Shown here piece by piece: positions 10,169-31,700 of a stretch of DNA of 64,000 nucleotides (position 1 is its first letter; each line of letters opens with the position of its first letter). The stretch is from an uncultured Clostridia bacterium (GTDB lineage Bacteria > Bacillota > Clostridia > Christensenellales > DTU072). Location: NCBI GenBank assembly GCA_944363505.1, contig CALVUD010000002.1, forward strand, positions 274,516 to 338,515. The letters are read 5' to 3'. Under the pieces are notes generated by a model. That model was not told the origin of the DNA and ran no database searches. It saw only the letters and a list, made by a program, of their open reading frames with translations. A program made the position numbers and the translations under genes.

Positions 10169-10195
10169 CGTGACTCAAACTTCGGTCGATTTCTT

Positions 10196-10219: not shown

Positions 10220-10345
10220 GACGAATATACGCTCCGAAAAGCCGTTTTCGTCCGCTTCCTGCGTAAGTATCGCTCGGTTTTTAAACTAAAACAGTTATAA
10301 GGAAATTTAAAACACGCCTTTATCAAAAATTGCTTATTCTATAAT

Positions 10346-10706: not shown

Positions 10707-10870
10707 TTCTTTCAGCGTACTCGGCGCCCGAGGGATGGGAATTTTCGTTCGGTTCTAAGGGTAGAAGCGAAGGCTACGGTTCCGTGCCGAGCCTCGCTCC
10801 CGACGAAACGGACGAAAAGACGCTCCCGCAGGGTGTAACGGGAAGCGCCCCGTCCCTAAGGGCGGGCGCA
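10707..10870 (+). repeat. Structured non-coding repeat, copy 2
   Basis: Second copy of the 163-nt unit at 10346, in the same orientation. It differs by a handful of substitutions and a diverged loop in the terminal hairpin (GCGCCC/GGGCGC kept). One outer-stem G-T pair of copy 1 is an A-T pair here (CGGACGAAAA). It sits immediately before the terminator of the giant lipoprotein gene. Confidence 0.7.
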
Positions 10871-13900: not shown

Positions 13901-16900
13901 CTGCCGTCGGCGTTCTTGACGGGATTGCCTTTGATCACGTTATGTACGTACAGCGATTCCAGATCATAATACTCCATACCGTCGGTATGCGCGCCGGGGG
14001 TAGTGCTCTTTGCGGGCATATCGGAATATTCATAGGTCCCGAAATTGTCTTTTAACGAATCGATATACTGTTGTGCGTCGGCTATCGTTATCCCGTATTC
14101 CGCCAGCGTTTCGGCGCTCAGCCCCAGTTCGAAGCGGAAATCGTTTACTCCGTATTGTCCGTCGGAGAGCGACACCGAAGCGCTGTCTATAAGGTAGATC
14201 CTGTACAAGCCGTTCGGATCTTCCACGTAATTGCCTGCAGAGTCTTTGGAAACGCTTACGGTCGTATATCCGTAGGTGATTGTGTAAGGTTGCAACTGAT
14301 AACCGCGGTCGGAGCCGTCATAAGTATACAACACGTTCATTCCTTCTTTGAGCGTCGCTACGATCGGTATGGGATTGACGCGGACGCGGAAGCTCTGTAC
14401 GTTCAGCGAATAATTCTCAAGCGCCGCCTGCGTTTTCGAAACGTTCAGGTTATTCGCGCCGAGCGTGTATGTACCCGCGCTGAAAGGAACTCCGTTGTTT
14501 TTCAGTTCGTTCAACGAAGGCTGATTGGCTCCGCCTTTCTGTATGTCGAACTGAGACGCGCTTTCGCCGTTTACGAAGCCCGAATAAGTGAACGTATACG
14601 ACGCTTCCGGAGGCATTCCCGTATAATACGTTTCGATATAGTTCGAGCCTACGGGCGAAACGTTCACATTGAGTTCTTTAGGCATTATGACGACGGCTAT
14701 CGCGGTATCGCCGAAATCCAGAATATAGTTTTCAAACACATAATTTTTATCGTTCGAGAACAACACGTATACGGGATTGTTCCCCGCGGTCAGCGAAACG
14801 GGAGCGGTCGCCGACAACGGATCGTCCGCGGGTTCGAGCTCTCCGGATTCCGCGAATCTGCCCGCAGTATAATTCCATACAATCGTCGAAAGCGCCACCC
14901 TATTTCCGTCCAGTTCTCCGTACACGGTATCGGCGCTTTCATTCAACACGAATCCCGAATACGCGAGGTTTTGCCTAAACCAGTCCATAGTCAGCGTATC
15001 GCCGTAATATTTCTCTACGTTACCTGCGCCCGAAACCGCATAGGAAAGCCTGAGCGTGGCTTTTTGGATCATCAGAATGCCCGGCTCGATTGTAATATAA
15101 TAGTTTTGCGAAGCGGAGGCGGGTAACGTAGCGGTCAGAGCGCGGCTTCCGGACACCGACGCGGTGCTGCCGATAAGGTTGGTAACGCCGTCGTTTCCGA
15201 GGCACACGAACGCAATATCCGTAAAGCTGATGACCGAAGTAAGTGTTTCGCCCTCGGCAAGATTGCCGCTCGTAACGTAAAACTGCGTAAGCGCCTTTTC
15301 GATTATTGCGTTCTGACTGATCTGATCGCCGTAGACCAGACCTATGTCGATGGAACCGAACGCGATGGTCAGGTTCGCACGCGTTATGGTATAAGTTCCG
15401 AAATTCGATCCGGTTCCCGCGACAAGCGAATAGTTGGGGCTGAGTTCCGAGCTTTCCGCGTCTGCATAAATTTTTATATCGCCGATATAAATCTGATATG
15501 TGCCGCGGTTGTTCCCCGCCGCCCTCGTTGCGTTACCGCGGATATAAAGTCTGGTACCGTTATCGTTAAAGTATCTGTATACACCGTCTTCTATCCTGAC
15601 CAGATAAGTGCCGCTGACAACGTCGAAAATGCTGTATTCTATCGTCTGCTCGCCGCTGCCGTACTCCACGCTGACGGACGGGACGTGTATCTCAAACGTT
15701 CTGGGCTGGATCCTGACTGTCGGGTTTTGGTTACTCATAACGAATGTTATGTTATAATCGCTGGCAACCGCTATGACGGGATATCCGCTGCCCGAAGTAA
15801 CTTCGGATATTTCGGTTACGCCCTCGCCGCCGACTATCAACGCTATATAGCTGTTCTCCTCGAAGTAAAGGGAGGTAAGCGAATTCAACAGGTTTTCCGC
15901 CGAAGCGTAAGCGTTTTGCGCCGCCACGGTATCGGATGCGTCTATGGCGCTCGAAGCCGAGTCGAGAGCGGCATCGAGATCGCTTATCGCAGAAAGCATT
16001 GCCGCTAAATTGTCGGCGTCCAAAAACTCGCTGCGTGCGGCAATAATCTGTCTGAGCTGCGACAAAACGTTTCTGGTGCGCGTAATATAGCTCTTGGCTT
16101 CGGACGGACGGTCGAGATTGATCTCGCCGAACGCGTTTCTAAGCGACGTGAGCGAATCGCCTATTACCGTCAGATTTTCGCTGAATTTCCACGACTTGGT
16201 ATCGGAATTATATACGTTTCCGTATGCGTAGGTGCGTATTGAGGGCGCGTTTTGCGATGAGAACGCCGTTCCGAAGTTAATATCCGGCAATTCGAATTTG
16301 ATATCCGCGCCGTCGTAATACTTGGTCAACGCCGCGGTATTCAGCGTATACCTCACGGTGGCGGGTTTGATTGTGTAAATGTAGGGAGAAGCCGCGCTGA
16401 CGGTAAAGTTTAAGTCCGTGCAGCCTACGGAAACCGTATACTCGCCTACCGAGGAATCGCTTCTGCCGTCGGAAAGTATTCTGTCGAAAGTGAAGAACAC
16501 CGTTGAAGTATCGAATCCGGCGAATACGTCCACCATGTTGAACTGGCTGTTGGATACGGACGGAGCCGCGCCGTCGTAAACCTTGCTTAACGCGTTATCG
16601 AAAATTCTGATCACGATAGCGCGCGGCAACATCACGAATTTATAATCCTCCGCGAAAATCACGTTAAAGTTGTTATTCGCGGGAGCGGAAGTCAGTCCCA
16701 CGGTATAAACCGCGGGATTGCCGTCGGAATCGAAGTAAACTTCCGTAACGAGAGTCGGCGTGCCGTTGGCAAGTACGCCTACCTCGAAGCTGAACGGCAG
16801 ATTGCCGCCGTACTCGGCGTCGACGGAAGTATAGTAGTCCACGCCGTAAATCAGCATCGAATTACTGCCGTACTCCCTGACCAAAGTCATCGGATAATCG

Positions 16901-19900
16901 GGGTTTTTACCCGCGTCCGCGAGAGTAATAATCACTTCCTTGGATTTAACGCTAAACGATATATTATAATCGCCGTCTTCTTCGAGAGCGTAGTTAGAAG
17001 TATCGAAGCCCGTCGCGTAAACGGTATATGCGCCCGCGTCCGTAACGCCGCTGAGATTCAGAGTAACGAACACTTCGTCGTAGCGCGGACGGTTCATGTT
17101 ATCGGTCGCCTGGGAACCGTCGGCATTATATATCGGCATGGGATTTTTGATAGATGCGGAAAGCTGATATACCGAAGCCGCATAAACGAGATCGGCTTCC
17201 GCCAGCGAAACCGCACCGCTTTCGGTAGCCACGAAATAATCGATTTCCGCCGGCGTTACGGTATACGGAGATATTACGTAAGTATAATCAGTTTCCGTCG
17301 CGAACGTGTAATTGGCTCCGGAAGAAGCCACGCTTACAGGATAGCTACCCGCGTTTTTGGAACCGCTTTGGAAGTTCAATTTCAAATAGCCGAGAACCGT
17401 TTGCGGAGTTTCCGCCCCGGCGATACCGGTTTCCGTCCCGAGGAACACGGTTATACCGTCCGCTTCGAACAGCGTTATCGCATCGGACGCGACCGAGGGA
17501 GTCTTTCCGTCGTATATCTTGTTCAGCCCGCTTTCGTCTATCTTGACCGTAAGGTTTCTGGAGGTTATGACAAAACGGGCGGAAACAAAGTTAATGTTAT
17601 AATTGGGATTCGACAGCGTATTCAGCGTTATCGCATATTCCCCTACCGCTTCGCCTTGCGACCTGGAAAGCTCGCCGTAAAGCGTGTCGCCTTCCAACAA
17701 TCCCGAGGAGGCGCCGAAAGCTTCGACCGTATACTGAGCCTCGGGATCAGCGAAACCGTATTGCTTATAGGTGGCGAGAGCCTCGACTTTCAGCGAACGC
17801 GCCGTAACCGTCAGTCTGCCGTTGACGATACGGACGTCGTAGTTATGGGCGCGTTCTCCCGTTCCGTCGGGAGTAGCGGAAACCACATAGCTGCCGACGG
17901 GAGTACGGTAGTACGGAACATATACGCCGCTTTCGTTCAGATATCCGTTACTTTCGTCTATTCCGGGATAAACGAAGGTCACCGCGCCAAGAATCTGCTC
18001 GGGAGTAAGCGCCGAATCCATCGACGCGAAAGCCGAAGAAGTATCCGTGCATGCGGCGTCGCCGAAATAGCTGAGTCCCGGGATAACGTACTCCGCTCCG
18101 TAAATTTTGGAGCTGCTGCCCACCTGCACGTAAACGGTGCGTTTTTGAATCGTAAACCATTTCGCGTCGGCGCTGTCGGCGGAATTTTCGAACACGATCA
18201 GATAGTTCGGATTCATCGTGCTCAAGGTGCCCGATGTGATCAGGTACTTTCCGACTTCGTAATCGCTGTTATACTTTTCCCTGAGGAGCGCGCCCAGTAT
18301 CGAATCGTTATTGACGAGTCCGCTTTCCGCAACGCCGTCGATTGCGGAAGCGTAAATCGGGATCGCGGGTTCTATCGCGCCGTAGGTCGCGCTGACGGAG
18401 TCGGTGTCTATTTTTACCTGTCTTCTGGCGACGGTATACGCCTGAGTCTGATAAGTTACGGCATAGTTTTCGGAAGCGCTCTGGGTTACGAACGAAAGCG
18501 CGTACGTTCCCGCGGCGGTTTTTTCGTTCATTTCTACGCGCGAAGCGCCGCTGAAGTATCCGAAGTCGAAGATATTGACACGCCTTGTGCCGTTATCGTC
18601 GGTAACGTAAGCGAAAGTCGAATACGCCTCGGGATTTTTGTAAAGGTCGTCGAAACCCTCGCCTTCGGCAAAGCCCGAAGCCATGACCGTAACGTCGGGC
18701 GTCGGCTGACCGTATACTTTTCCGCGTACCGTTGTACCCGCATACTCGAAAGGCGAAATCAGGAAAGTTACCGTGATCGTGCGCTTGTTTATGACCAAAC
18801 TTTGCGAAGTATCGGTAAATTCGTTATGAATCGGGTCTCCCGCATAATAGACTACGACGGTGTAAATGCCCGCATCCACGGGAAGCGTATCGTAAACCTT
18901 ACCCGAAGCGTCCGTATAATAGATCCTGTATGTGCCATCCGTACCGTCGCCCTCGGTAAAGCTCTTGCCGATGTTGTCGTAATCGAAATACCCCATCATC
19001 GTCAGTTTAATTCCGACGGAAGCGTTTTCGTCTTTATATACGCGCTCGTATACGTTAGAAGGATCGAACGTTATGCTCGGGGTGCGCCTGTCGCGCATAT
19101 AAACGAGGTAGCTCGTTTCCGCCGTCTTTCCGTCGAAGGTATAATCTATGACTATTTTTTGGGTGCGCGTAACGTTTCCGTCTATTTCGGAATTGTCAAA
19201 CGGCGCGGAGGTGTTCAGTCTGATATTGAACTGACCCGCGACCTCGCCCGCAACGCCCCTGATAACCGTGGCGTCCGCCAAAGAAACGATGTCGCTGAGT
19301 CCGTTGGAGTAATATATCCTGACGGTATCGGTTTCGGCGACTTCGAATTCTTCGCCTTCGACGTAATACTGTTTGGGAGGCATGCCGTTTATCTCTATTT
19401 TCACCAACTCCTTGGCGATAACGGAGACCGTAACGGAGGTTTCCAGCCTCACGCCTTCGTAAACGTAGTAAACGGTTACGTTGCGTTCGCCCACAAGCGT
19501 ATCGTATGCGTCGTAGCCGTTAGGATTTGACTCTGCGGAATAAGCGATGTATTGCTTTTCCAAAGGCACCTGCGCGTGGGTTCCGTCGCTGAATTCGAGG
19601 TTGACGGTGATCCCGGAAAGATTTATGTCCGCTTCCTGAACCACGGTAATGTTGCTTACGTTCAACGATATTGAGCTCAGCGTACGCTCTGCGATCGTCA
19701 GCAAAATATAGAACTCGCACCCGCGATAGATAAGTCTCGGGCTTTGCGTTCCGGGCGAAGAAAGGTTATACGAGCTTTCGTCCACGGTGATCTCGCCGAT
19801 AATGTCCGACAGAATCGACACTCTCGCCGAGCCGTCGGAATAGGTTACGGTAACGTACTGATCCATAAGGCGCGTGCTGTAGCCCGAGGACGAAACGACG

Positions 19901-22560
19901 TATACTCTGTTCAATTCCAACGGAGCGCCGCCGTAAAGCTCGGTCTGCGGAGCCGAAGTACCGCTCGTCCACGCGACGGACACGGGGACAGCCTCGTTTA
20001 CGGTTACGTCGAAAGTATCGGTCAAAGTATAAGTAAACGTGTTGCCCTCGGAAATTTCGTAATATGTATAGACGAGCGTTACCGTCTGGAGACCGCTGAC
20101 GGAAGCGTTGTAGCCCGAATAGCTCAGCGTGCCCGACTGTAGCGCGGCATTTATATCCGACACCGCCACGCGGGTACCGTTGTCGTAAACGAGATTGACG
20201 TTAAGTCCCGCGAAATTCAGGCTCTCGCCGCGCACGTATTCCGTTTTCATCGCGCTGACGTCGGCTTCCACGTCGACGAGCGAACGGGATTCAACGGTCA
20301 ACGCGAAAGCATACGCTTCGGGGTCGGAAAGCGTTACGCCGTTCTCGGTGAAAGAATAAGGCACGTCTATAATGCCGGGCGTAAGATTGTCGCGACCGTT
20401 ATAGACGATACCTACCCTGGGATCGGTCATGCGGACGAATTCCCTGAGGTTTACGCCGTCGGCAATTCCTTCGTAAACGATTTCCAGCCATACGCCGTCC
20501 AGATTAATCGAAGCGCCCGTCGGAATGACGAACTCGCTCGGGTCGTCGGGATTTACGGCGTCTATACCGCTCTCGTCGCGGTACATGCCCGCTATCGAAA
20601 CTGGCGCGTTGGTTACCGTTACCGCAATATTGCCGCCGAACACGGTCGACTCGCCTATTCCGCGGTTCTCGGGACGCAGAGTATATACGCCGACCTCCGT
20701 AAATATCAGATTGAGCCTGACCCCGTCGTACTCGGTTTCGTAAGTCAGATCATCCGAAACGGGAACAAAACTCCAAGCGTTATAGAAAACCGCGTCAAAT
20801 TCCGTAAAGGTTTCGCTGCCGCCGTCCGTATAGACGATTTCCAGCGCCAGCCCCGTCGGATCGAACGCGGTTCCCAAAGGTTGCGAGGAAACGAACGACC
20901 CGCCTTCGCCAATCACGTTCACCGCCGAAACCGCGCGAGCGATAATGACGACGGCTTCCTTTGTAAATTCATCCTCATAATCGTTGCGGAACACGAAATC
21001 CGCGGTCGTATATCCGAGCGCCGCCGCGGCGTCGTAGCGCAGTTCGAACGAAGCGTTGTCCAGCTCAGCCACGTTTTCTATCGCCGCCCTCTCGGAAGCG
21101 CCGGAGTTGTAAATAATCTCTATTTCCAGTTCGCCGTAATTTATTTCGCCGGTACCGCGGTATATTACCGCAATGGCGCCGTCGTCGTCGGAATAGAAAA
21201 GAATGTCCGTTACTTCCAAAGCCTTGACTTCGAAAGTATATTCGGTCTCGAGGTTGCTTTGACGTATCAGCCACGTTACCTGACCGGGTTCGTCGTAAGT
21301 ATCGGTTACCACGCCGCCCTGCCATACTATCATGGAATTGGTCAGCGCCGTTTCCTCGCCGTATTCGCCGTTGTCGTAAACGTACCTGTAAGTGAATTCG
21401 GAAACGTCGAAAGCGGTGTCCTCGAAAACTTCGGGAGCGGAAACGATCTCGAGTCCGACAAGGCTCCTGGCGTTAACGGTTACTACCAGCACGTCCTGCT
21501 TTTGGAGCACGGCTTCGCCGTATTTGAATTGCAATAAAAGCGACTGCTGTCCCGCTGCGGACGGAACGTATCCGGAAACGTCCACATACCTGTCGTCGGG
21601 AAGTTCTGCCGTAAGGATTTCGCCGTTGGTATAAGTGATCCTTATTACGGCGTCGCCCCAGTTAAAGGGAGTGCCCTGAAGCTGTTCGGGAACGGGGGTC
21701 AGGAATTCGTAAGAAGCAACGTTCCTCTCCTGTACGCTTACGTTGTACGATACGGTAAAACCGTAATACTCCAGCGTTACCGGAACGCGTGAGTTTTCGA
21801 CTCCCGAATCGAAAGAAACGACCTTTAACCCTTCCAGCAACGTGCCGCCCGACACCATTTGGAAACGTTCGGAATATCCGTTGTTATAGGTAACGAAAAG
21901 TTCCCCTCCGCTAAGATCGACGTCGCTGTCGCCGAGATAATAAATGTTTCTGGAGGGTTGAACGGTGATCTCGATACGGCTGATCTCGCGCTCTCTGACG
22001 TTCACCGCATACGTGGCGGTAACCGTTTCGCCGTTAACGGTATATGTTACGGTGATACTTTGCTGCCCTATCGTATCGCGGTCGTATCCGGAGCACATCT
22101 CGGCGGTAACGGGAACGGTCTCCACGCGTGAATCGACGTAAGTGATGATCAGATTGTTTCCTTCCGTTTTCAGGTTCTGACCCTGAACGTGATCGTAGTT
22201 TTCGGAAGGTATCTCGAGTTCCACCGTGGAAACGGAACGGCGCTTAACCTCGACCATAACGGTTACGCTGCTGTTGCCGTAATAGATTTTTATGTACTGT
22301 GTGCCCAAAACCGAAGAATCGAAATCGGAGATCATGCTGGGGGTAACGTCAATCAGTTCCTCCTGACCGTTGACGTAAGTAACCAAAATCCTGGCGCCGT
22401 TCAAATCGAACTCTTCGCCGAGATAATAGCTGGTTTTAGGCGAGGAGTAAACACGGATATTGTCTATGTTCGCCTCATTTTCGCACGCGGTCAGCGTCAG
22501 TAACGACAGCATGCCTATCATAACGATCGCCAGAATTATTAAAATCGATTTCTTCTTCAT
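10918..22560 (-). CDS. Giant (3880-residue) Ig-like repeat lipoprotein
   Basis: Predicted surface lipoprotein of roughly 420 kDa. The signal peptide ends in lipobox LTAC with Cys26, so it should be lipidated and held on the membrane outer face. Residues ~30-1160 are about a dozen tandem ~75-90-residue Big_3-like Ig domains with the recurrent pattern YxxGExxDLxGxxxxVTYxNG. Residues ~1160-2900 are MBG/YDG-type beta modules (KVYGQ, KIYDG, KYYGD motifs). A helical Ala/Ser-rich insert lies near 2137-2237. Residues ~3070-3245 resemble a concanavalin/LamG jelly roll (YFEVRADYAISF, FFDGEIHRIRFEI), and more beta domains fill the end. There is no LPXTG motif and no catalytic motif. It is transcribed alone. 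Adhesion or glycan binding is plausible but inferred. Confidence 0.88.
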   Translation of the reverse strand: MKKKSILIILAIVMIGMLSLLTLTACENEANIDNIRVYSSPKTSYYLGEEFDLNGARILVTYVNGQEELIDVTPSMISDFDSSVLGTQYIKIYYGNSSVTVMVEVKRRSVSTVELEIPSENYDHVQGQNLKTEGNNLIITYVDSRVETVPVTAEMCSGYDRDTIGQQSITVTYTVNGETVTATYAVNVREREISRIEITVQPSRNIYYLGDSDVDLSGGELFVTYNNGYSERFQMVSGGTLLEGLKVVSFDSGVENSRVPVTLEYYGFTVSYNVSVQERNVASYEFLTPVPEQLQGTPFNWGDAVIRITYTNGEILTAELPDDRYVDVSGYVPSAAGQQSLLLQFKYGEAVLQKQDVLVVTVNARSLVGLEIVSAPEVFEDTAFDVSEFTYRYVYDNGEYGEETALTNSMIVWQGGVVTDTYDEPGQVTWLIRQSNLETEYTFEVKALEVTDILFYSDDDGAIAVIYRGTGEINYGELEIEIIYNSGASERAAIENVAELDNASFELRYDAAAALGYTTADFVFRNDYEDEFTKEAVVIIARAVSAVNVIGEGGSFVSSQPLGTAFDPTGLALEIVYTDGGSETFTEFDAVFYNAWSFVPVSDDLTYETEYDGVRLNLIFTEVGVYTLRPENRGIGESTVFGGNIAVTVTNAPVSIAGMYRDESGIDAVNPDDPSEFVIPTGASINLDGVWLEIVYEGIADGVNLREFVRMTDPRVGIVYNGRDNLTPGIIDVPYSFTENGVTLSDPEAYAFALTVESRSLVDVEADVSAMKTEYVRGESLNFAGLNVNLVYDNGTRVAVSDINAALQSGTLSYSGYNASVSGLQTVTLVYTYYEISEGNTFTYTLTDTFDVTVNEAVPVSVAWTSGTSAPQTELYGGAPLELNRVYVVSSSGYSTRLMDQYVTVTYSDGSARVSILSDIIGEITVDESSYNLSSPGTQSPRLIYRGCEFYILLTIAERTLSSISLNVSNITVVQEADINLSGITVNLEFSDGTHAQVPLEKQYIAYSAESNPNGYDAYDTLVGERNVTVYYVYEGVRLETSVTVSVIAKELVKIEINGMPPKQYYVEGEEFEVAETDTVRIYYSNGLSDIVSLADATVIRGVAGEVAGQFNIRLNTSAPFDNSEIDGNVTRTQKIVIDYTFDGKTAETSYLVYMRDRRTPSITFDPSNVYERVYKDENASVGIKLTMMGYFDYDNIGKSFTEGDGTDGTYRIYYTDASGKVYDTLPVDAGIYTVVVYYAGDPIHNEFTDTSQSLVINKRTITVTFLISPFEYAGTTVRGKVYGQPTPDVTVMASGFAEGEGFDDLYKNPEAYSTFAYVTDDNGTRRVNIFDFGYFSGASRVEMNEKTAAGTYALSFVTQSASENYAVTYQTQAYTVARRQVKIDTDSVSATYGAIEPAIPIYASAIDGVAESGLVNNDSILGALLREKYNSDYEVGKYLITSGTLSTMNPNYLIVFENSADSADAKWFTIQKRTVYVQVGSSSKIYGAEYVIPGLSYFGDAACTDTSSAFASMDSALTPEQILGAVTFVYPGIDESNGYLNESGVYVPYYRTPVGSYVVSATPDGTGERAHNYDVRIVNGRLTVTARSLKVEALATYKQYGFADPEAQYTVEAFGASSGLLEGDTLYGELSRSQGEAVGEYAITLNTLSNPNYNINFVSARFVITSRNLTVKIDESGLNKIYDGKTPSVASDAITLFEADGITVFLGTETGIAGAETPQTVLGYLKLNFQSGSKNAGSYPVSVASSGANYTFATETDYTYVISPYTVTPAEIDYFVATESGAVSLAEADLVYAASVYQLSASIKNPMPIYNADGSQATDNMNRPRYDEVFVTLNLSGVTDAGAYTVYATGFDTSNYALEEDGDYNISFSVKSKEVIITLADAGKNPDYPMTLVREYGSNSMLIYGVDYYTSVDAEYGGNLPFSFEVGVLANGTPTLVTEVYFDSDGNPAVYTVGLTSAPANNNFNVIFAEDYKFVMLPRAIVIRIFDNALSKVYDGAAPSVSNSQFNMVDVFAGFDTSTVFFTFDRILSDGRSDSSVGEYTVSVGCTDLNFTVSAASPYIYTIKPATVRYTLNTAALTKYYDGADIKFELPDINFGTAFSSQNAPSIRTYAYGNVYNSDTKSWKFSENLTVIGDSLTSLRNAFGEINLDRPSEAKSYITRTRNVLSQLRQIIAARSEFLDADNLAAMLSAISDLDAALDSASSAIDASDTVAAQNAYASAENLLNSLTSLYFEENSYIALIVGGEGVTEISEVTSGSGYPVIAVASDYNITFVMSNQNPTVRIQPRTFEIHVPSVSVEYGSGEQTIEYSIFDVVSGTYLVRIEDGVYRYFNDNGTRLYIRGNATRAAGNNRGTYQIYIGDIKIYADAESSELSPNYSLVAGTGSNFGTYTITRANLTIAFGSIDIGLVYGDQISQNAIIEKALTQFYVTSGNLAEGETLTSVISFTDIAFVCLGNDGVTNLIGSTASVSGSRALTATLPASASQNYYITIEPGILMIQKATLRLSYAVSGAGNVEKYYGDTLTMDWFRQNLAYSGFVLNESADTVYGELDGNRVALSTIVWNYTAGRFAESGELEPADDPLSATAPVSLTAGNNPVYVLFSNDKNYVFENYILDFGDTAIAVVIMPKELNVNVSPVGSNYIETYYTGMPPEASYTFTYSGFVNGESASQFDIQKGGANQPSLNELKNNGVPFSAGTYTLGANNLNVSKTQAALENYSLNVQSFRVRVNPIPIVATLKEGMNVLYTYDGSDRGYQLQPYTITYGYTTVSVSKDSAGNYVEDPNGLYRIYLIDSASVSLSDGQYGVNDFRFELGLSAETLAEYGITIADAQQYIDSLKDNFGTYEYSDMPAKSTTPGAHTDGMEYYDLESLYVHNVIKGNPVKNADGSYTATCRLENMETGNSNYAFTYEDFDVNVVTSVVSVVTSLKETLSEADLAAYIQNGAISDEFRKAIAFYAMNAMLTNEAVYGEGDVIDTAFSSVDDNIILELISSSEYKSDITYLLKVFYSKQASLGVSLGSVSYTYSTYVRGSDGVYTSRQSTLTLNDERLLQYNSDEIFSMLPLRFRKTSTVSVVNPGIGGMNYGAVTNSLNSVNGYFTNSALGAYDAGYFEVRADYAISFKNSSLSLLLNGTAADGLYMTFYADSYNYFTLEYYSGGMVTETQKYYVPYGRFFDGEIHRIRFEISKDGYTFIASVDGYSGALLDLKSFDAYKTGTEAGVSQFNENSYGGIRFRAGSVVLRRAEYYTVGRYSDKRGILVSLKESSSVVVAAPGESDYFVLNSVRLNDFFGLSYVINASGGVVTYLEPEGYDYVFYLDGVQYDYENLDGVVLTSGRHLVEVALYTGSTLVDVDRLTVDVVSALEANAVYALRYDSQGNPDSEDPEDYKFNGTTVLELYDRDDTYTGANAEYVRKSSSEIYSAAIMQGSTDVCNYVSTVFTAERSAIKGTGATAYYPAYADGAEFMNVALFSLTPDSFNLYDGVVLVFTITQSADQNIGSGGEYTLTAALYYTIDGSISGNAIATLYSATLNENDVPLFSLTAYVDRNFADYFGSGNMNVIFGADGEYTCVTIADETMSARIGTGIQSSSDSDGGPLVLTTATYARVTLYDAVFGLGLPAMASDYVSGSGFEFVAGGKSVSVSDGERLYLSENGLVPGALRHNGVKISFRSTTDGIMRLYLSANGVEPEAAGTEGVYLEFDFSAATLTFRFYMSLSAEDGGGIRLSAAQTVSLTELFGEIPAEFELDANYLTDVIEESVSMKAVSNLSFGSKVILQASSNSPVYYETVRVTLNGKQIEFYCPLFSDNMGLWLIENGDGSESFFGSSNPYGNAVDLADIPSFIGYFGYVSIEYTGTSTVTVDSFGAYLGTDNSDMDFAITETPAI

Positions 22561-22872
22561 AATTACCTCTGAGAAGTTTTGGGCATAACTTCCCGTTTAA
22601 TTCTATCATATCGCGCGCGCGTACTTACAATATAAATAATTAAATTTACTATTGTTATACTTTGGAGCGCGCGTTCCGCCGCCGAAAATTCGCCGCGGCG
22701 GCAAAACTACCGAACCCGTTTTTCACGCAAATCAGGCTTTCGATGCAAGGCGATCCGCCCGCTTTTCCGGGCGACGACAAAAGACCGCCGCGTTTTGGCG
22801 ACGGTCTTTTAAATTAAAATTCAGGTATGGAAAAACCGTTATGCGTTTTGACAAAGGCGCTCTGCGGAAAAG
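22561..22872. other. Intergenic region: leader of giant gene plus terminator
   Basis: No gene is seen in this stretch. On the minus strand it holds the leader of the 3880-residue protein, with a possible but imperfect promoter (TTGTAA and TAGAAT, 19-nt spacing) near 22600-22635, a GC-rich hairpin GCCGCC/GGCGGC near 22678-22704, and the terminator at 22779-22810. The region around 22600-22625 contains a GCGCGCGCG tract. Confidence 0.5.
22779..22810. terminator. Terminator after the RAYT-like gene
   Basis: AAAAGACCG...CGGTCTTTT with an inner CGC/GCG pairing and T-runs at both ends, 62 nt beyond the stop of the gene ending at 22873. Confidence 0.8.
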
Positions 22873-24168
22873 TTATCTGCAATACGCGGCTATCGTTTTT
22901 ACCCTGTTCGGGTCTTCGAAAGAATCGCGTATGCCCAGCGAGTCGATCACGCTTTCCACGGGCTGACGACGGGAACGGGCGATGAATCTGATTATTTCGA
23001 CCACAAGCGCGTCGTTGTAATACTCCACCTTACCGCCGACCACGGCGCAATACGCAAACCCCATCATGGCGAATATCTGGTCCACGGAATAACCCAGTCT
23101 GTCGCTGAGATCTATTATCGTGTCTATCGCCAGAGAGCGTTTGTCGTAAATGTCCAGCTGAAGCGCTTCGCAGGCGTAATCGAACGTGCGCTTCGCGCCT
23201 ATTATCAGCTCCTGAATCGTCTTGAGCATCAGAACATACTTTACCCTGCCGGAAACGGCGAGTTTTTTGCAGATCTTGTCGAAAGGCGCCGCGGAACGCT
23301 CGTTGACCTCGGCAATTATCTTCGGCATCACGTCGTTTGGAATTTTCTTTTTGGTGAAGCAACCGAAGTCTATCAGCGTATTTTCTATCGCGTCGTTCAG
23401 TTTATCGAACGACGGGCACAGCATCGAAGCCAGATCCGCCGAGAAAACGGGTCTGACGACGTCCGACTGCGCTTCCTTCAGCGCGCTTTGTCCTTCCGCT
23501 CCGAAAGCCGCCGAGAATGCGGTACGGGACGAAATTCCCTTTTCGCCTTCGCCTACGGAACAGAACGGATACTTTCCGCCCTGGCGCGCTTCGCCGCGTA
23601 CCGCGGGCTGACGTTCGACCACCACTATCTGTTCGGCGGTCTCTGCCGCGTCCTTTAAACGCTTTATCAGCGGACGCGACCTGAACGGCGAACCCGAATG
23701 ATCGAAGACCTCGTTGTAATAGCCGATATACGTCGTCATCGCCAGGGCGAAGAAACGCCTTAAGCTTATCTCGGTCTGGTCGAAAGACGCCGCGACGAAA
23801 TATGCGGAGTTATTCAGCACGGAATAACTCTGTATTTCGACGGGATAATACGGCAACGCGCCCGCTATACATTTGATAAAATAGTTTTTCGCGCCCGCCG
23901 TGGGGAACACGGGCTGACCCGCTTTTCCCATCAGAGCCACTCTGTAAAATTTGGCGACGTCCGAGTTATAAGCGCCTACGCCGATTTCCTCGAAGCCTCT
24001 TCCGCTCCGTCTGACGATCGAAACGGCGTCGGGCTGCTGACCGTTGACGAACGTGCCGTTAACATACGACATGTCGCGGTTCGGATCGTATAGCGCCGAA
24101 CCCTGAGGCGGTACTGCGTAACCGGTTCCACGAACGTTAGAATTTATTCTGTCGGTACGTCTTGACAT
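22873..24168 (-). CDS. RAYT/IS200-type (Y1) transposase-like protein lacking the HUH motif
   Basis: 431 residues. Residues ~74-170 follow the REP-associated tyrosine transposase pattern: FYRVALMGKAGQPVF, then a YSVLNNSAYF segment where active members read Y-C-(M/L)-x-N-H-V-H-L, then YIGYYNEVFDHSGSPFRSRP matching the YxNxxxxxxGxxFxxR block. Here the metal-binding HUH residues are Ser121-Ala122-Tyr123, so DNA cleavage chemistry is probably lost. Tyrosines 147, 150 and 151 are present. The C-terminal ~200 residues are helical, with no family I can name. The start follows GGAGG at 7 nt. It closes the aminotransferase-aldolase-transporter cluster, 66 nt after the transporter start-distal end, and its own terminator follows. 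A domesticated DNA/RNA-binding role is inference. Confidence 0.62.
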   Translation of the reverse strand: MSRRTDRINSNVRGTGYAVPPQGSALYDPNRDMSYVNGTFVNGQQPDAVSIVRRSGRGFEEIGVGAYNSDVAKFYRVALMGKAGQPVFPTAGAKNYFIKCIAGALPYYPVEIQSYSVLNNSAYFVAASFDQTEISLRRFFALAMTTYIGYYNEVFDHSGSPFRSRPLIKRLKDAAETAEQIVVVERQPAVRGEARQGGKYPFCSVGEGEKGISSRTAFSAAFGAEGQSALKEAQSDVVRPVFSADLASMLCPSFDKLNDAIENTLIDFGCFTKKKIPNDVMPKIIAEVNERSAAPFDKICKKLAVSGRVKYVLMLKTIQELIIGAKRTFDYACEALQLDIYDKRSLAIDTIIDLSDRLGYSVDQIFAMMGFAYCAVVGGKVEYYNDALVVEIIRFIARSRRQPVESVIDSLGIRDSFEDPNRVKTIAAYCR

Positions 24169-24234
24169 AGCGTTTCCTCCACTTTGTTCCCTTAGGGATG
24201 CGGGAACCTGTTTTTATTGTTTCCCTAATTAAAT

Positions 24235-25830
24235 TTATGCGTTTTCGGTATCCGAAACCTCGGCTTGAGTAGCCGATTCCGCTTTACGCAGGTTGATTTG
24301 TTCGACAAGCCATCTCTGCTTGTCCTCGGTGATCGTATAGAAGAACATCGGGATCACGCAGGCAATAAAGCTGACAACGCCGGAAAGTACCAGCATCAGC
24401 CACAGCTTGTTGAGTCCGTCCACGGTCATGGAACCCTCGGGATTCGAAGGGCTTATACCGCTCATTCTGTAAGCGATAACGCCGATGAACGCGCCGATCG
24501 CCATACCGATCTTGTTGATAAGCGTCTGCATAGCGAAGCATATGCCTTCCGCACGTTCGCCCGTCTTCCATTCGAGATATTCGACGGTGTCGCCTATCAT
24601 CGCATAGGTCATTATGTTGGATATTCCCTGCGGAATACCTATCAGCAGCATGCATACTACGCATACGACCAGTCCGGCTGTACCGTTAGTGCCGCGCAGA
24701 GCGCCCTTGTCGAAGTCCCACATAAAGAACATCACTACCATCGCTATCGCTCCTATAATATGAGAACCGATAAACGACCATTTCTTGGTAAATTTCTTTG
24801 TAAGCCAAGGGCAAAGCACAGAAGCTATGAGTCCGCCCGGCACGACCAGCATCGTCAACAGACTGTACGCGCCTTCGTCGCCCAAAGCATATTTGCAAAA
24901 ATACAGACCGCCGGTGTATGTATAAACCATTCTGGCGCCGCCGAGAATACCCGACAGCACTATCAGCATCAGTTCTTTATTTTTAAACAGCAGCTTGAGG
25001 TTATGTCCGAGAGAAGGAAGTTTCTGATTGTCCTCTATCGTGCCGCAACGTTCCTTTGTGTTCTTGAAACCGATATAAAACATCGGTAAGGACAAAATGA
25101 CTAGTACGATTGCGATTATAAAGTATGTGTATTTCAACGTTGTCGCGTTTTCGACGGCATATATCGGATTGACCAGACTTTTGCCGTCTGCGGTGGTATA
25201 ATGATACTGTTTGGTTACCGCGGCGGTAATCTGGGGAACGAGTATCGTAACGAGTCCCGCGCCCGCCGTACAGAACAACCTTGCTATCGTCAACAGATTG
25301 CCGCGTTTTGTGGTATTATTCGTCATCGTGGTGGAAAGTCCCCAGTAAGGAACGTCAGCCACCGTATAAACCACGCTCCACACGACGTAGATAAGACTAA
25401 GCGCTATAAAACCGCCTAGATCTTTAGGATACCACGGCAAAAAGCACAAAATCGTCATGATTGCGATAGGAATTGCCATCCACAGAAGGTAAGGACGACA
25501 TTTACCCCACTTAGTACGCGTTCTGTCCACTATCGAACCCATAATCGGGTCGTTAAACGCGTCGAAAAGACGCGTAACGAGCATAAGGATCGCCACCGCG
25601 GTAACACCGGTCATTGCGCCTACATTGGTATCTATATTGAATCCCAAAGCGTCGGTCATGAACACCGTAAGGTAAGAACCTATAACGGTGCAGATAAAGT
25701 TTTGTCCCAGTCCGCAGATGCTGTAGCTCCAACTCTCTTTAGGTTGGATGTCGCCGTCGTTAGGCGTAGTTCCGAAAAGTTTGTGCGAAAACGCACTGAA
25801 CTTTTGCGAGATGGTCGTTTTCCCTTCCAT
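24235..25830 (-). CDS. GPH-family sugar:cation symporter (MelB-like MFS_2)
   Basis: 531 residues with about twelve membrane helices. The family imports oligosaccharides, glycosides, pentosides or hexuronides with Na+ or H+. The signature after helix 2, DAFNDPIMGSIVDRTRTKWGKCRPYLL (~85-115), is diagnostic. AGGAGG precedes the ATG, 12 nt after the class II aldolase gene, so it is in the same operon and probably imports that pathway's substrate. The C-terminal tail (~490-531) is cytoplasmic and charged. The substrate cannot be read from sequence. Confidence 0.92.
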   Translation of the reverse strand: MEGKTTISQKFSAFSHKLFGTTPNDGDIQPKESWSYSICGLGQNFICTVIGSYLTVFMTDALGFNIDTNVGAMTGVTAVAILMLVTRLFDAFNDPIMGSIVDRTRTKWGKCRPYLLWMAIPIAIMTILCFLPWYPKDLGGFIALSLIYVVWSVVYTVADVPYWGLSTTMTNNTTKRGNLLTIARLFCTAGAGLVTILVPQITAAVTKQYHYTTADGKSLVNPIYAVENATTLKYTYFIIAIVLVILSLPMFYIGFKNTKERCGTIEDNQKLPSLGHNLKLLFKNKELMLIVLSGILGGARMVYTYTGGLYFCKYALGDEGAYSLLTMLVVPGGLIASVLCPWLTKKFTKKWSFIGSHIIGAIAMVVMFFMWDFDKGALRGTNGTAGLVVCVVCMLLIGIPQGISNIMTYAMIGDTVEYLEWKTGERAEGICFAMQTLINKIGMAIGAFIGVIAYRMSGISPSNPEGSMTVDGLNKLWLMLVLSGVVSFIACVIPMFFYTITEDKQRWLVEQINLRKAESATQAEVSDTENA

Positions 25831-25842
25831 GAATACCCTCCT

Positions 25843-26484
25843 TTATTTAGTCGCTCTTTTGTAAAATACTTCGAATATATCGTCTATATCGATTTCTTCC
25901 TTATTCAGTTCGCGCCCGACCACGCTTTCGATATAAGCGCGGCTGTTTTCTTCCATCGCCTTGCATACATCGAACGCGCCCTCTATCGTTTCGGCGCAGA
26001 CTACTATTCCGTGATTGGACAAAAAGCAAGCGTTCCTGCCCTTTATTGCCTCGACCGCGCCGTTTGTCAGCTTCTTTGTCCCGGGCAGTCCGTAAGCGCC
26101 CGCGCGCACGGAGTCGCCTCCGAGCAACTTTTTATGCTCCTCGCTTATAACGGGGATCTCCTTCCTTGCCGCCGCCAATGCCGAACTCCACAACGGGTGC
26201 GAATGGATCACCGCGCCGATCTCGGGACGGTCGCGGTATATCGCGGCATGGATCTTCTTCTCCGACGTCGGTTTTATCGGACTGTCGTATTCCAGAGTTT
26301 CTATGTCGACCACGACGGTGTCCTCGGGACGCATACGGATATAATCCATGGCCGAAGGGGTAACCACCATCTTTTTGTCGTCCAGACGAATAGAGATGTT
26401 TCCCCATGTGCCTTGAACGAGATTGCTTTCCAGTAATTTTACGCCCGCGTCTTTAACAGCCTGCCTTACTTCTTTTTCCGTCAT
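25843..26484 (-). CDS. Class II aldolase (L-fuculose-phosphate aldolase family)
   Basis: 213 residues, normal for FucA/RhaD/AraD-type zinc aldolases and epimerases. The zinc ligands are visible: His94 and His96 in AVIHSHP and His158 in SNHGI. The general acid position Glu75 lies in PTSEKKIH, and the phosphate-binding loop in GTWGNIS (25-31). By family it cleaves a phosphorylated ketose into dihydroxyacetone phosphate and an aldehyde. Its start follows GGAGG, overlapping the end of the paralogue upstream, with 1 nt between stop and ATG. The exact sugar is unknown. No fucose isomerase or kinase is in the window, so a fucose role is not shown. Confidence 0.85.
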   Translation of the reverse strand: MTEKEVRQAVKDAGVKLLESNLVQGTWGNISIRLDDKKMVVTPSAMDYIRMRPEDTVVVDIETLEYDSPIKPTSEKKIHAAIYRDRPEIGAVIHSHPLWSSALAAARKEIPVISEEHKKLLGGDSVRAGAYGLPGTKKLTNGAVEAIKGRNACFLSNHGIVVCAETIEGAFDVCKAMEENSRAYIESVVGRELNKEEIDIDDIFEVFYKRATK

Positions 26485-26485
26485 G

Positions 26486-27124
26486 TCAGCCTCCCTGTTT
26501 CTGCTCTTCCAGCTTTGCCGCCTGGTCTTTTTTGCTGTATTTCAGTTTGTAGACCAGACGCATCAGAACGGCGTCGAACAAGCCTATCCTGACGGGTTTT
26601 GCGACTATCGACGAACCGACGTAACACAATGCGCCCTTTTCCAAAACCAACGAACCGGTGAACGCTTCGTCAAGCGTTCTGCCCGTGGCTATGACTCCGC
26701 CGTTTCTTATAAGGCACGCGTTTCTTCCCGACAACGTCTTTAAAACGTCGGCGGCTTTATCCGAAGGCGAAACTTTGGCGCTCGGTCCGATAATCTGAGC
26801 CATGTCGTCCAAAGTCGCGGGGAAAGATTTCAGCTTGCGCGCGATACCCGTACAAAACGGCGCATGATTCATAATGACGGCGTTAATATCCTCGCGGGTG
26901 CCGTAAACGGCAAGGTGCAACGCCTCCGTCGCGTTCGCCGCGGCGTTCTTGCCGACGAAACGCACGTCTTCTTCGGTCAATGACGCGACGTCTTTATCGG
27001 GGGAAGTTATAAGCATCCCTTCATCCGTTCTCAGACTGACCACGTCGCCCGGCATCGTCAGATTGTGTTCTGCAAGTTTTTTGCAACAATCCAACACCAG
27101 TTTTTTTCTGGTATCCTCAACCAT
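26486..27124 (-). CDS. Degenerate class II aldolase paralogue
   Basis: 212 residues, co-linear with the aldolase just downstream but with two of three zinc ligands replaced: AVIMNHAP has Met85 where His94 sits in the paralogue (His87 kept), and IRNGGV has Gly142 for His158. The general acid Glu67 in ATEALHLAVY is kept. The phosphate loop GTWGNIS is changed to TMPGDVVS. It is unlikely to be an active zinc aldolase. It may be a structural partner in a hetero-oligomer or have a new function (inference). The gene starts behind GGAGG after an intra-operon hairpin and is intact, with no stop codons. Confidence 0.7.
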   Translation of the reverse strand: MVEDTRKKLVLDCCKKLAEHNLTMPGDVVSLRTDEGMLITSPDKDVASLTEEDVRFVGKNAAANATEALHLAVYGTREDINAVIMNHAPFCTGIARKLKSFPATLDDMAQIIGPSAKVSPSDKAADVLKTLSGRNACLIRNGGVIATGRTLDEAFTGSLVLEKGALCYVGSSIVAKPVRIGLFDAVLMRLVYKLKYSKKDQAAKLEEQKQGG

Positions 27125-27224: not shown

Positions 27225-28724
27225 TTATTTCAACAATCCCCTGTCGGTGGCTTCGACAGTCGAGAACACTTTGTCGAAACGGCTGAGCGCGTCGTCGATG
27301 ACCTCGTCGGTGTCGGCGAGTGAGGTGTACAATCTGCTGCCGGCGAGAGTAACTATGCCGTTAGCCATATAAGCGGCGCCCATATGTTCCATGGCGTCCT
27401 TTCTTTCGTAGATCATCGCTTTGTGCTTCAACACGCCCAGCAAGGATTTGACGAGGTTGAAAGAGCTGAAATCGAAACTCATTGCGCCCGTGCACTCGAG
27501 GTGAACGATACTGCCCTGGTTGTATACGACGTAAGGCAGTTTGTGTTTGGCGACCAAGGCTTTCAAACCGTTTGCCAGTCTGTCGCCCGCCTGACCCGCC
27601 TTCACGCACGCGTTCGTGCGCTCGATCTCCTGAATGGTCAGATAACCCGCCATAGAGCTCATAGGGTTTGCCGCCAGAGTGCCGCCGACGTAAGCGCGAT
27701 GTTTTCCGGTAGCGACGCCCGCAGCCATCAGACCCGCATAGTTCTTCTTGCCGCCTACGCCGCCCGCCGCGGGATAGCCGCCGGCGATGATCTTTCCGAA
27801 GATGGTCAGATCGGGTTCGATACCGAAATATCCCTGCGCGCCGCCGAGACCCAGACGGAATCCGGTAACCACTTCGTCGAATATGAACAACGCTCCGTAT
27901 TTATGAGCGAGTTTGAGCGCTTCCGCGTTATAGTCCTTGGATACGGGACGGGTTCCCGATTCGGGACCTACCGGCTCCACTATGACCGCCGCGGTGCCAC
28001 CGCGCATCTTGTTCAGCCACAGCATTTTGTCCAACATTTCCAAAGAATTGGGCTTGACTTCGTCGGTAGTCTTATAGCAGTTGCCGGGGATACCGAAGCT
28101 TTCGAGGAACTGTCTGGTTCCGGGAATCTTCAGCCCGTAAACCATCTGATCGGACCAGCCGTGATATGCGCCGCCGACCTTGATGACTCTCTTTTTCTTG
28201 GTCTCTATCCTGGCAATCCTGAGCGCCGCCATGACCGACTCGGTTCCCGAGCCGAGCATACGGAACATCTCGACTGCCGGCATATGCTTGTTGATTTCCT
28301 TTGCAAGCAACAGTTCGGCTTCGTGCAAAAGTCCCGTAACGGGTCCGCATTCGTCCAAAAGCTTTTTGATCTCAGCCCTTATAGAGGGATAGTTGCTGCC
28401 AAGGATCGTGGGACCGCCCGCCTGAAGAAAGTCGATATACTGGTTTCCGTCGACGTCCCACATATATGCGCCTTCGGCTTTCGCCACCGCGATCGGGAAG
28501 GGATAGTTGAACGCAAGATTGTGCTGTACGCCGCCGGGAATGTAATTCTTGGCTTCCGTGGAAATCTTTTTGGAACCGGCGCATTTGGTATCGAAGTATT
28601 CCAGAATGCGTTTGAGTTCTTCGGGATTTACCTCATAAATGGGTTTAGAGGTAAGTTCGTGCAATTCCCGATAAATTTTATCGGGATCTTCCCAAAAAGA
28701 AACACCGTATTTTTGCTCGTCCAT
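27225..28724 (-). CDS. Class III aminotransferase (glutamate-1-semialdehyde aminomutase-like)
   Basis: 499 residues, longer than HemL (~430) because of an N-terminal extension of ~55 residues. It is a PLP enzyme of fold type I: cofactor Asp in IFDEVVTGFR (D283), Schiff-base Lys311 in FGKIIAGGYPA, and GSGTESVMAA (158-167) at the phosphate site. Similarity is to the GSA-aminomutase branch, but no other haem gene is nearby and the neighbours are aldolases and a sugar transporter. A role in amino-sugar or amino-polyol catabolism is therefore more likely than haem synthesis (inference). AGGAGG stands 12 nt before the ATG. It is the first gene of the cluster running leftwards. Confidence 0.8.
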   Translation of the reverse strand: MDEQKYGVSFWEDPDKIYRELHELTSKPIYEVNPEELKRILEYFDTKCAGSKKISTEAKNYIPGGVQHNLAFNYPFPIAVAKAEGAYMWDVDGNQYIDFLQAGGPTILGSNYPSIRAEIKKLLDECGPVTGLLHEAELLLAKEINKHMPAVEMFRMLGSGTESVMAALRIARIETKKKRVIKVGGAYHGWSDQMVYGLKIPGTRQFLESFGIPGNCYKTTDEVKPNSLEMLDKMLWLNKMRGGTAAVIVEPVGPESGTRPVSKDYNAEALKLAHKYGALFIFDEVVTGFRLGLGGAQGYFGIEPDLTIFGKIIAGGYPAAGGVGGKKNYAGLMAAGVATGKHRAYVGGTLAANPMSSMAGYLTIQEIERTNACVKAGQAGDRLANGLKALVAKHKLPYVVYNQGSIVHLECTGAMSFDFSSFNLVKSLLGVLKHKAMIYERKDAMEHMGAAYMANGIVTLAGSRLYTSLADTDEVIDDALSRFDKVFSTVEATDRGLLK

Positions 28725-28769: not shown

Positions 28770-31700
28770 TCAGCCCGTTGCGGACAGAATCACGAATGAC
28801 AGTGAATATGTTCCGCGGAACGAATAGTTGTCCGAAATCTGGACCTTGTATTGTCCCGCCGCGCTCGGACGGTTGTCAAGCAACACCCAACCGCCGTCGG
28901 AATACATATAATACTTTATATCCGAAGATTTGATCTCCTCGGTAACGCCGCTCTCGTTCACGAAACTCGCCGTAAACGCGCCTATGCGGCTTCCCGTTTC
29001 CACGAACGTGCCCGTGGCAAAGCCCTGCGGCGGCGTAAATCTTACGTCTATGGCTGTGCCGTCGGGCATCGCGGTAACGACCCTTTGAGTTATGGTCAGC
29101 TCGCCGGGATCGGCGATAAGTTCGTAGAACGCGTTGTCGTTCGCGCCCGCGACCATGGAAGCGATAATGTCGTAGTAGCCTACGTTTTCTCCCGCCACCC
29201 TGCTTAGCGAAATCTGGATCAGATCGCCTTCCAGGACCACGCCGCCATCTATGGTATATCTGAATTCGGGGTCGGACTGACCGTAAACTTTCGACATATC
29301 GATTATCTCGATGAACAGCGTGCGCTTCGTTACGTTAAACGTACCGTACTCGATTTCGAGATCCTCGTAGTATTCGTTTCCGAAAATTATTATCTTTAAT
29401 GCGTAACTGCCGGGATATACGGGTCTCGATTCGCTCCAGGCTCCGTCAACGAAATACAATACGTCCGTCGAGGGCAGCACCGCCCCGGGAATGCTGGACG
29501 CGCTGATACCGACTACCGGTTCCGCCGAATCGCCGTATTCGTCCGAAGTACCCGAAAGAGATATTCTGTCGGCTCCGTCGGTACTCAGCCGGATTTTTCT
29601 GTACGTAGTAACTTCGAACGACGTTGACGCCGTACCGTAGGTAACGGTTACGGTCTGAACGTAACTGCCGCCGATAATGCTTCCCGAGCCGAAAGGACTG
29701 ACTATATAACCGCTTACCGCCAGCAGTCCGTCGGTCATGGGTACCACGTCGGATTCGCCGTTGGAATAATTCCTTTGCAAATATCCGCCGACGAGATCCA
29801 GTTGCTGCCCTTCCGCGTAATCGACTTTGGAGGGAACCTGAATGATCTCGATGCTTTCGAGCTGTCTGTTGCTGACGTAAAGGGTTATGGTGGCGGTAAA
29901 GCCGCCGTAGCTGATAGGCACTTCCAGCAAAACGTATATGCGTTCGCCGTTGTCGTCCTTGACCCAGTTCTCGTCCGACGCGACGACGTTACGGTCGTAA
30001 CGGATATATTCGACTCGCAGCGGCACTTCTATTTCCGTCGAGTCCGCAAGTATAGCGGTAAACGTCAGCATCGAGACTCCGCCGTCGGCGTCGCCCCGGT
30101 AAACGCTGAGATCCTGACCCAAAGTAACGACCAGAGCGTAATATCTTTCACCTTTGTCGTCGGTAAACTCGCTCATTCCCGCCTGGGTAGCGTCAAACGC
30201 GATACCCTTCAGCGGAGAGTCGTCTATAATTATATCGGTATAAGCGGTAAAGCTCTTGCCGCCCGCAGAATAGTATATCGGCAACGAATACAGTCCGCTC
30301 GTTCCGGGCGCTATCTCGCCGAATGAGATCGCGGCGTTGGGATACGATACCTGCTCCTGAGTGCCGTCGTCATATACCTTTACGAGCCTTAGCCCTGTGG
30401 CGTCGAAAGCCTCTCCCGGAGCGTAAACGCTCTTTGACGGCGCCGAAGAAACGGTAACCGAGGTAATCTGCCTGCCGGTCAGCGTTACCCCCAGGGTAAC
30501 GTAAGCGCCGCGGTATCCGAACACGAAAGTCTGACTCTTGCCCGTCAGCGAAGTCAATCCCGCCAAAAGCGTAACTTCGTCGGAACTTAGCGGTTCGTCG
30601 AACGGAGTCCCGTCCGCAAACTGTCCCCTGACGTCGTACGCCGCGAGGAGCGAGGCGTAATCGGATTCAGACACCACCGCGCCCAAACCTATCTGAGCGT
30701 TCGTTATAACGTCGTACACGCCTATCGAGCCGACGTATGCGGATGCGTCGACCACGCTGAAGTCGAACGACGCTTCAAGTCCGTAATATTCGATAACCAG
30801 CCTGTAATCGCCCAAAGTGTTGAACACGTTGGAGGTCTCGCCGCCCTGTTCTCCGTCGTTCATCACGTAATAACGCCCGTATTGAGAAACGAAATCCGCC
30901 GTCAGGAGCGAATAGCTGACCTGTTCGCCCGTATTGAGTTCGGCGTAAAGCGAAGTTCCCGTCAGATCGAGTTCGCGGTCGACGCTCGCACGATAAACGC
31001 TTTTGTACGGGAAAGACACGTCCAGTCTGTACGCGACGGGTTTGGCTACCTTGACAAGGAAAGAAGCCTCTTTTCCGCCTGCGGTGAAAGAAATCGTCTG
31101 AACGGAATAACCCGAACCCGTTTCGGTGGCGGCGTTGTATCTGAGCGTCAGCACCGAACCGTCCGAAAGCATGCTCTCGGTGAGCTGACCCCAACCAGAG
31201 CCCGAACCGTCGCCGTACTCGAATTCCCAGGTTTCGTTATTGTAAAGGATGTTGTACTTCAAATATCCCGTAGTCAGCACGGTGCCCTGAGCGAAGATCT
31301 TCTCGTTAATGCGATCCGCCGACGGACGCGCATCCGCGACAAACATCGTATGCGCCTGTTTTTCGAAAACGCTGACCGAAATCGGAGTAAAGAAATTGTT
31401 GGAAGCGTAACGGATATATGCGGTAACCTCGCCCGCCACGTCGAAAGTGTAATTGGTCTTGTCGACTATGTAATTCGCGGATTCGGTACCGTTGACGTAC
31501 AGATAAAACGCGCTGTCGTCCATATAAATTTCTTCGGTATATCCGTTGTCGTAAGTGATGCGCGCCTTGCCCGTCGCCCAGTTTATCTTGTCGCCCTGCA
31601 CGACGTGGGTAAGAAGCGAAGGCTGAACGCCGGTGGAGGCGAACCCCACAGTAACGGGAGCGGTTATTATTTCGACGGATTTACAGGAAGGATTGACGAC

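What the first reader, a model, noticed from the sequence alone, without database searches (positions are those of the whole stretch)
22873..24168. Domesticated RAYT-like protein with the HUH catalytic motif erased, in a sugar cluster
Seen: the block order of REP-associated Y1 transposases is kept (MGKAGQPVF, YSVLNN, YYNEVF...GSPFRSR), but the His-x-His position reads Ser-Ala-Tyr and the C-terminus carries ~200 extra residues. Known: RAYTs and IS200-like enzymes need HUH for cleavage and recognise palindromic hairpins. Inferred: an exapted nucleic-acid-binding protein, perhaps recognising hairpins such as those at 10196-10870. The alternative is coincidental similarity.
Basis: partly seen in the sequence, partly recalled or inferred. 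Interest (0 to 1): 0.62.

Follow-up and report, generated by a model that had tools for sequence, protein, structure and literature searches.

The report
Dead transposase kept beside giant lipoprotein
In one family of uncultured gut Clostridia, a DNA-cutting transposase protein has lost its cutting residues but is still kept by nearly every member, usually right next to a gene for a giant cell-surface protein, which suggests that a jumping-gene enzyme was re-used as a cell component, probably a regulator.

Summary
The 431-aa minus-strand ORF at 22873-24168 descends from REP-associated tyrosine transposases (RAYTs). No Pfam model recognises it, but a profile of its relatives matches canonical RAYTs (hhalign 99.6%, E 1.7e-24), and the best structural match of its AlphaFold model is E. 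coli RAYT bound to a REP hairpin (Z 14.7, 144 residues). His-x-His reads S121-A122-Y123 and the catalytic Tyr reads V183. None of 33 aligned relatives has both histidines; 39 of 40 canonical RAYTs do. The C-terminus is four ~33-aa helical repeats that resemble the RAYT C-terminal HTH.

The protein is not decaying: it is in 38 of 40 genomes of its family and dN/dS is 0.03-0.13. In seven of ten genera it lies directly beside, and in the same direction as, a giant Big_3/MBG lipoprotein (3880 aa here). Eight species of the genus carry a single-copy, covarying hairpin just upstream.

I think it is an exapted pseudo-enzyme that regulates its neighbours through a nucleic-acid hairpin. Origin and loss of catalytic residues are well supported; the regulatory role is inferred. 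The hairpins at 10196-10870 are probably not its target.

The parts
22873..24168 (-). RAYT-derived pseudo-enzyme gene, 431 aa (P0001)
   Evidence: ORF; homology; dN/dS
23461..23970 (-). Y1-transposase-like domain, residues 67-236
   Evidence: profile and structure matches; coordinates
23800..23808 (-). S121-A122-Y123 in place of His-x-His
   Evidence: alignments
23620..23622 (-). V183 in place of the catalytic tyrosine
   Evidence: alignments
22924..23340 (-). four ~33-aa helical repeats (residues 277-308, 309-341, 342-373, 384-415)
   Evidence: internal hhalign; model pLDDT 90.5; RAYT HTH match
24186..24207 (-). 6-bp hairpin GTTCCC-GCATCCCTAA-GGGAAC upstream of the gene; position matches the 13-15 bp covarying hairpin of eight sister species
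   Evidence: weak in this genome
22780..22809 (-). terminator-like hairpin after the gene
   Evidence: sequence
22600..22630 (-). promoter-like site of the giant gene (CGCGCGCG in the spacer)
   Evidence: sequence; not tested
22571..22594 (-). hairpin in the 5'UTR of the giant gene, next to its ribosome-binding site
   Evidence: covariation not formally tested
10918..22560 (-). giant lipoprotein, 3880 aa, Big_3 and MBG_2 domains, lipobox LTAC
   Evidence: neighbour in seven of ten genera
24235..25830 (-). MFS_2 sugar transporter, gene directly upstream
25843..27124 (-). two class II aldolase-like genes (25843-26484, 26486-27124)
27225..28724 (-). class III aminotransferase
28770..32525 (-). 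second Big_3/MBG_2 protein, 1251 aa

Best explanation
This is a REP-associated tyrosine transposase (RAYT) that was domesticated within one Clostridia family and became a pseudo-enzyme. It kept the Y1 (HUH-type) fold but lost the metal-binding histidines and, in most lineages, the nucleophilic tyrosine, so it should not cut or join DNA. Its C-terminal helix-turn-helix appears to have been multiplied into a four-repeat array. It is now a vertically kept single gene beside a giant Ig-like surface lipoprotein and, in most genera, at the end of a sugar-use operon. Most likely mode of action: the Y1 domain still binds a folded strand (DNA or mRNA), for example the hairpin upstream of its own gene; the repeat array contacts a second site or a partner; the result is control of its own operon and of the giant lipoprotein gene. 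Shown: ancestry, lost residues, conservation, synteny, covarying upstream hairpin. Inferred: nucleic-acid binding, the target, and regulation.
For: RAYT ancestry: hhalign 99.6%, E 1.7e-24; 4er8 best fold match Z 14.7; NF047646 hits. Lost catalysis: 0 of 33 relatives have both His, 39 of 40 canonical RAYTs do. Selection: 38 of 40 genomes of the family, dN/dS 0.03-0.13. Repeat array and HTH origin. Linkage to the giant lipoprotein. Upstream hairpin: 12 of 12 pairs in each of five distinct stems, 10 of 12 positions with two-sided changes, scores above every shuffle, single-copy in 4 of 4 genomes. Precedent for a dead transposon nuclease regulating an adjacent surface gene: TldR (PMC13418256).
Against: No binding or regulation data. 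The Y1 domain is not basic in all relatives (-6 to +8). The upstream hairpin shrinks to 6 bp in this genome and its sister, is absent in g9, and in g3 and most g2 loci the space upstream of the gene is too short for it. The giant is not directly adjacent in g6, g7 and g8. The C-terminal model has no clear solved relative.
Confidence: 0.5

Rival explanations
1. The protein no longer binds nucleic acid. The Y1 fold and the helical-repeat array became a protein-protein adaptor, for example a cytosolic partner in making or exporting the giant lipoprotein.
For: Helical repeats often bind proteins; several relatives have acidic Y1 domains or acidic repeat arrays; constant pairing with a surface protein; no signal peptide in P0001 (sequence).
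Against: Canonical relatives are hairpin binders; the array resembles a DNA-binding HTH; a covarying hairpin sits at the gene in most of the genus.
Confidence: 0.3
2. The upstream hairpin is an ordinary mRNA processing, stability or attenuation element that has nothing to do with this protein, which binds elsewhere.
For: It lies between two co-directional genes, is weak in the window's own genome, and hairpins there differ freely in sequence.
Against: A similar 3' foot (ACC then AAA) recurs in 11 of 13 species; canonical RAYT genes are often flanked by palindromes (PMC6006769); no T-run as in intrinsic terminators.
Confidence: 0.4
3. It is still a nuclease or strand-transferase with replaced active-site residues.
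For: Q187-P188 keeps part of the Y---NP motif and the fold is kept; Tyr and one His persist in some g2 members.
Against: Both metal-binding His lost in most, the first His lost in all 33; Tyr column variable (V, L, I, A, S, N, H).
Confidence: 0.05
4. A decaying transposase remnant without function, or coincidental similarity.
For: Loss of catalytic residues; no Pfam hit alone.
Against: Open frame in 38 of 40 genomes, dN/dS 0.03-0.13, conserved synteny, and agreement of profile and fold.
Confidence: 0.02

Closest known systems
RAYT / TnpAREP, class 2 Y1 HUH proteins (PMC6006769; E. coli structure 4er8)
   Same: Y1 fold, block order, SSY-type motif after the active site, HTH-like C-terminus in some subclasses, single-copy domesticated gene
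   Different: No HUH, no catalytic Tyr, four-repeat C-terminal array, no multicopy REP found, fixed linkage to a giant lipoprotein gene
IS200/IS605 TnpA (IS608, ISDra2)
   Same: Same fold (Z about 9-10.5)
   Different: TnpA is a small catalytic transposase of a mobile element; the own genome has three intact ones elsewhere
TldR, nuclease-dead TnpB repressors (PMC13418256)
   Same: By analogy: dead enzyme from the IS200/IS605 world, domesticated and tied to a neighbouring surface gene
   Different: TldR is RNA-guided and RuvC-derived; no sequence relation claimed, no guide RNA known here

Membership tests
RAYT / TnpAREP | Y1 (HUH-type) fold | tested here: met
   4er8 Z 14.7, 144 residues, 3.1 A
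RAYT / TnpAREP | Sequence homology to RAYTs | tested here: met
   hhalign 99.6%, E 1.7e-24; NF047646 best E 0.0027
RAYT / TnpAREP | PF01797 match over its cut-off | tested here: not met
   No PF01797 match for P0001 or any of the 26 relatives; the PF01797 scan of the own genome finds only three IS200 copies
RAYT / TnpAREP | His-x-His motif | tested here: not met
   SAY here; 0 of 33 relatives with both His
RAYT / TnpAREP | Catalytic Tyr in Y---NP | tested here: not met
   V183---Q187-P188
RAYT / TnpAREP | Multicopy REP palindromes recognised by the protein | tested here: inconclusive
   The upstream hairpin is single-copy in 4 genomes; the 10196-10870 repeat is multicopy but missing in 5 of 13 genomes; no genome-wide REP census was made
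RAYT / TnpAREP | Binds and cleaves ssDNA hairpins | not testable with these tools
   Needs biochemistry
RAYT subclass with C-terminal HTH / DnaA-like domain | C-terminal HTH | tested here: inconclusive
   Repeat 1 aligns with RAYT HTH, 81%, P 1.2e-5; DnaA domain IV only Z 4.5
TldR | Derived from TnpB, RNA-guided | tested here: not met
   Fold and sequence are those of a Y1 protein

The most novel reading that the evidence does not exclude
A catalytically dead single-strand transposase, the TnpA-side counterpart of TldR, is a structure-reading regulator: it binds a folded DNA or RNA hairpin at its own locus and controls a giant Ig-like surface lipoprotein, using an HTH array amplified from the RAYT tail.
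Probability: 0.4. Interest if true: 0.78.

Novelty: new variant of a known kind. Interest (0 to 1): 0.62.

Why it matters
RAYTs are called domesticated, yet what they do for the cell is unresolved, and a large survey kept only members with intact HuH and Y motifs because the others were taken as probably non-functional (PMC6006769). Here is a clade in which the HUH motif is gone in every member checked, the gene is under strong purifying selection and it is almost universal in its bacterial family. That separates domestication from catalysis and makes a non-catalytic role of a RAYT directly testable. If it regulates the giant lipoprotein, it would be a second case, after TldR, of a dead IS200/IS605-type enzyme becoming a regulator of a surface gene.

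Tried and rejected
Single-sequence searches of P0001 against Pfam, NCBIfam and PDB gave nothing usable, nor did PHROGs. A profile search of PDB sequences with A1 gave no hit. Rfam found nothing over its cut-off at the hairpins except the tRNA. The CGCGCGCG motif in the giant-gene promoter was considered as an operator and set aside, because the same kind of motif sits in other promoter-like sites of the window. The C-terminal model matched no solved structure clearly; absence of a match is not evidence of a new fold. Searching the family with part of the giant protein found only genus members, because that protein diverges fast, so giants of other genera were linked by BLAST clustering and Big_3/MBG domains instead. 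MAFFT alignment of the upstream hairpins misregistered the stems, so the count was made on foot-anchored arms chosen by hand in a script. Bertels et al. 2017 on domesticated transposases is not held in the library.

Full report
What is there. The ORF at 22873-24168 is on the minus strand, 431 aa, with a clean start, ribosome-binding site and stop. The host is an uncultured member of Clostridia (1.87 Mb, 12 contigs, 96% complete). Records with the closest relatives include Candidatus Stercoripulliclostridium and other gut MAGs.

Ancestry. Alone the protein is recognised by no curated family model. I collected homologues from whole genomes and aligned 26 (A1). Scanned one by one, four of them hit NCBIfam NF047646, 'REP-associated tyrosine transposase' (best E 0.0027). 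The A1 profile retrieves canonical RAYTs from other families of the order and class; nine that I aligned all match PF01797, and profile-profile comparison with them gives 99.6%, E 1.7e-24 over 251 columns. An AlphaFold model (16 sequences, pLDDT 79.8) has E. coli RAYT bound to a REP hairpin as best match: Foldseek E 1.6e-3, prob 1.00; VIA-align Z 14.7, 144 residues, 3.1 A, with IS608 TnpA next at 10.5. Sequence and fold agree, so coincidence is excluded.

Catalytic residues. In the alignment the HxH of RAYTs falls on S121-A122-Y123 and the nucleophilic Tyr on V183. None of 33 relatives has both histidines, and none has the first one. Six members of two genera (g2, g3) keep the second, and four of the g2 members also keep the Tyr; most others have x-A-Y/F and an aliphatic or small residue in the Tyr column. 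In 40 canonical RAYTs from the order and class, 39 keep HxH and 35 keep Tyr. The state is therefore a property of the clade, not of one genome. Class 2 proteins are described by Y---NP (PMC6006769); here it reads V---QP.

C-terminus. Residues 277-415 contain four ~33-aa repeats (non-overlapping repeats 1 and 3: hhalign 96%, P 4.6e-9), each a long plus a short helix in a confident model (pLDDT 90.5). Repeat 1 aligns with the C-terminal HTH of canonical RAYTs (81%, P 1.2e-5), and weaker further alignments fall on other repeats. I infer that the RAYT tail HTH was multiplied. In the class, canonical RAYTs match only the Y1 part and at most the first repeat, so the full architecture was seen only in this family.

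Conservation. The gene is in 13 of 13 genomes of the genus. By profile 39 of 40 genomes of the family match; one of these (G039) is a canonical RAYT with HAH and Tyr in an unrelated neighbourhood, leaving 38. The motif itself was checked in 33 of these plus one fragment. One genome (G032, 89% complete) has none. It is one copy; the two matches in G030 and in G038 are pieces of one longer ORF. dN/dS between species of the genus is 0.03-0.13, in the Y1 part as well (some dS values are near saturation).

Neighbours. In the genus and in g3, g4, g5, g9 and g10 the gene is followed, on the same strand, by a giant lipoprotein-like gene with Big_3/MBG domains; it usually ends an operon of aldolases, aminotransferase and MFS transporter. 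In g2 the order is reversed: the giant lies directly upstream, 9-34 nt away by ORF limits in most loci, the sugar genes are missing, and housekeeping genes follow. So the pair with the giant is the most constant unit: seven of ten genera. In g8 another ORF lies between them, in g7 the giant is not adjacent although a Big_3 gene is in the same cluster in one genome, and in g6 none was seen in 12 kb.

Candidate target. Between the MFS gene and this gene, eight species of the genus carry a 13-15 bp hairpin (scores 32-39 against a maximum of 23 in 1600 shuffles). Read from a similar 3' foot (ACC then AAA), 12 of 12 pairs form in each of five distinct stems and 10 of 12 positions show changes on both sides. 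It is single-copy in 4 of 4 genomes. In the window's genome and its sister it is only 6 bp (24186-24207). A hairpin also abuts the ribosome-binding site of the giant gene, with a TATGYCC loop shared by the window, L064, L066 and L071; that was seen, not tested.

Mechanism. I favour a hairpin-binding regulator of its own operon and of the giant lipoprotein (about 0.5). The main rival is a protein adaptor (about 0.3), since the Y1 domain is not uniformly basic. The nearest precedent is TldR, a nuclease-dead TnpB that regulates an adjacent surface gene (PMC13418256); this is analogy, not homology.

Novelty. RAYTs and their domestication are known. A survey of this superfamily kept only proteins with intact HuH and Y motifs (PMC6006769). 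A conserved, selected, HUH-less clade with a repeat array and fixed linkage is, as far as I could find in the library held here, undescribed; some key papers are not held. I class it as a new variant of a known kind.

Noticed in passing
window 10194-10870: Dispersed 148-169-nt repeat ending in a 26-nt imperfect palindrome (GCGCCYGTCCGTTCAGGCRGGCGC), in direct and inverted pairs next to a tRNA gene; full-length or partial copies at several places in the own genome and up to 15 matches in a sister genome, in 8 of 13 genomes of the genus. REPIN-like; what moves it is unknown.
   Followed up: partly
L149 (G667, another family of the class): A RAYT of normal length with R-A-N in place of HxH and Ser in the Tyr column, beside mcsA/mcsB-like genes: perhaps an independent loss of HUH.
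   Followed up: partly
L014, L015, L016 (own genome): Three nearly identical intact IS200-type TnpA genes, so apparently active Y1 transposases coexist with the dead one.
   Followed up: no
window 22571-22594: Hairpin in the 5'UTR of the giant gene with a TATGYCC loop shared by four species; a GCGCGC-type hairpin takes its place in other species of the genus.
   Followed up: partly
window 22600-22630 and about 59087, 60199 (minus strand): Promoter-like sites with CGCGCG in the spacer between the two hexamers, possibly a general feature of this genome.
   Followed up: no
L065 after position 11272: In G009 about 2.6 kb of extra sequence separates the RAYT-derived gene from the giant ORF, unlike in all other species of the genus.
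   Followed up: no
L023, L025, L026 (g7, g8): These homologues carry an N-terminal extension of about 100 residues that reads like a second, degenerate copy of the Y1 start (by eye only).
   Followed up: no
L027 and L029 (g10, g6): Homologues of 695 and 554 aa with large insertions between the Y1 domain and the repeat array.
   Followed up: no
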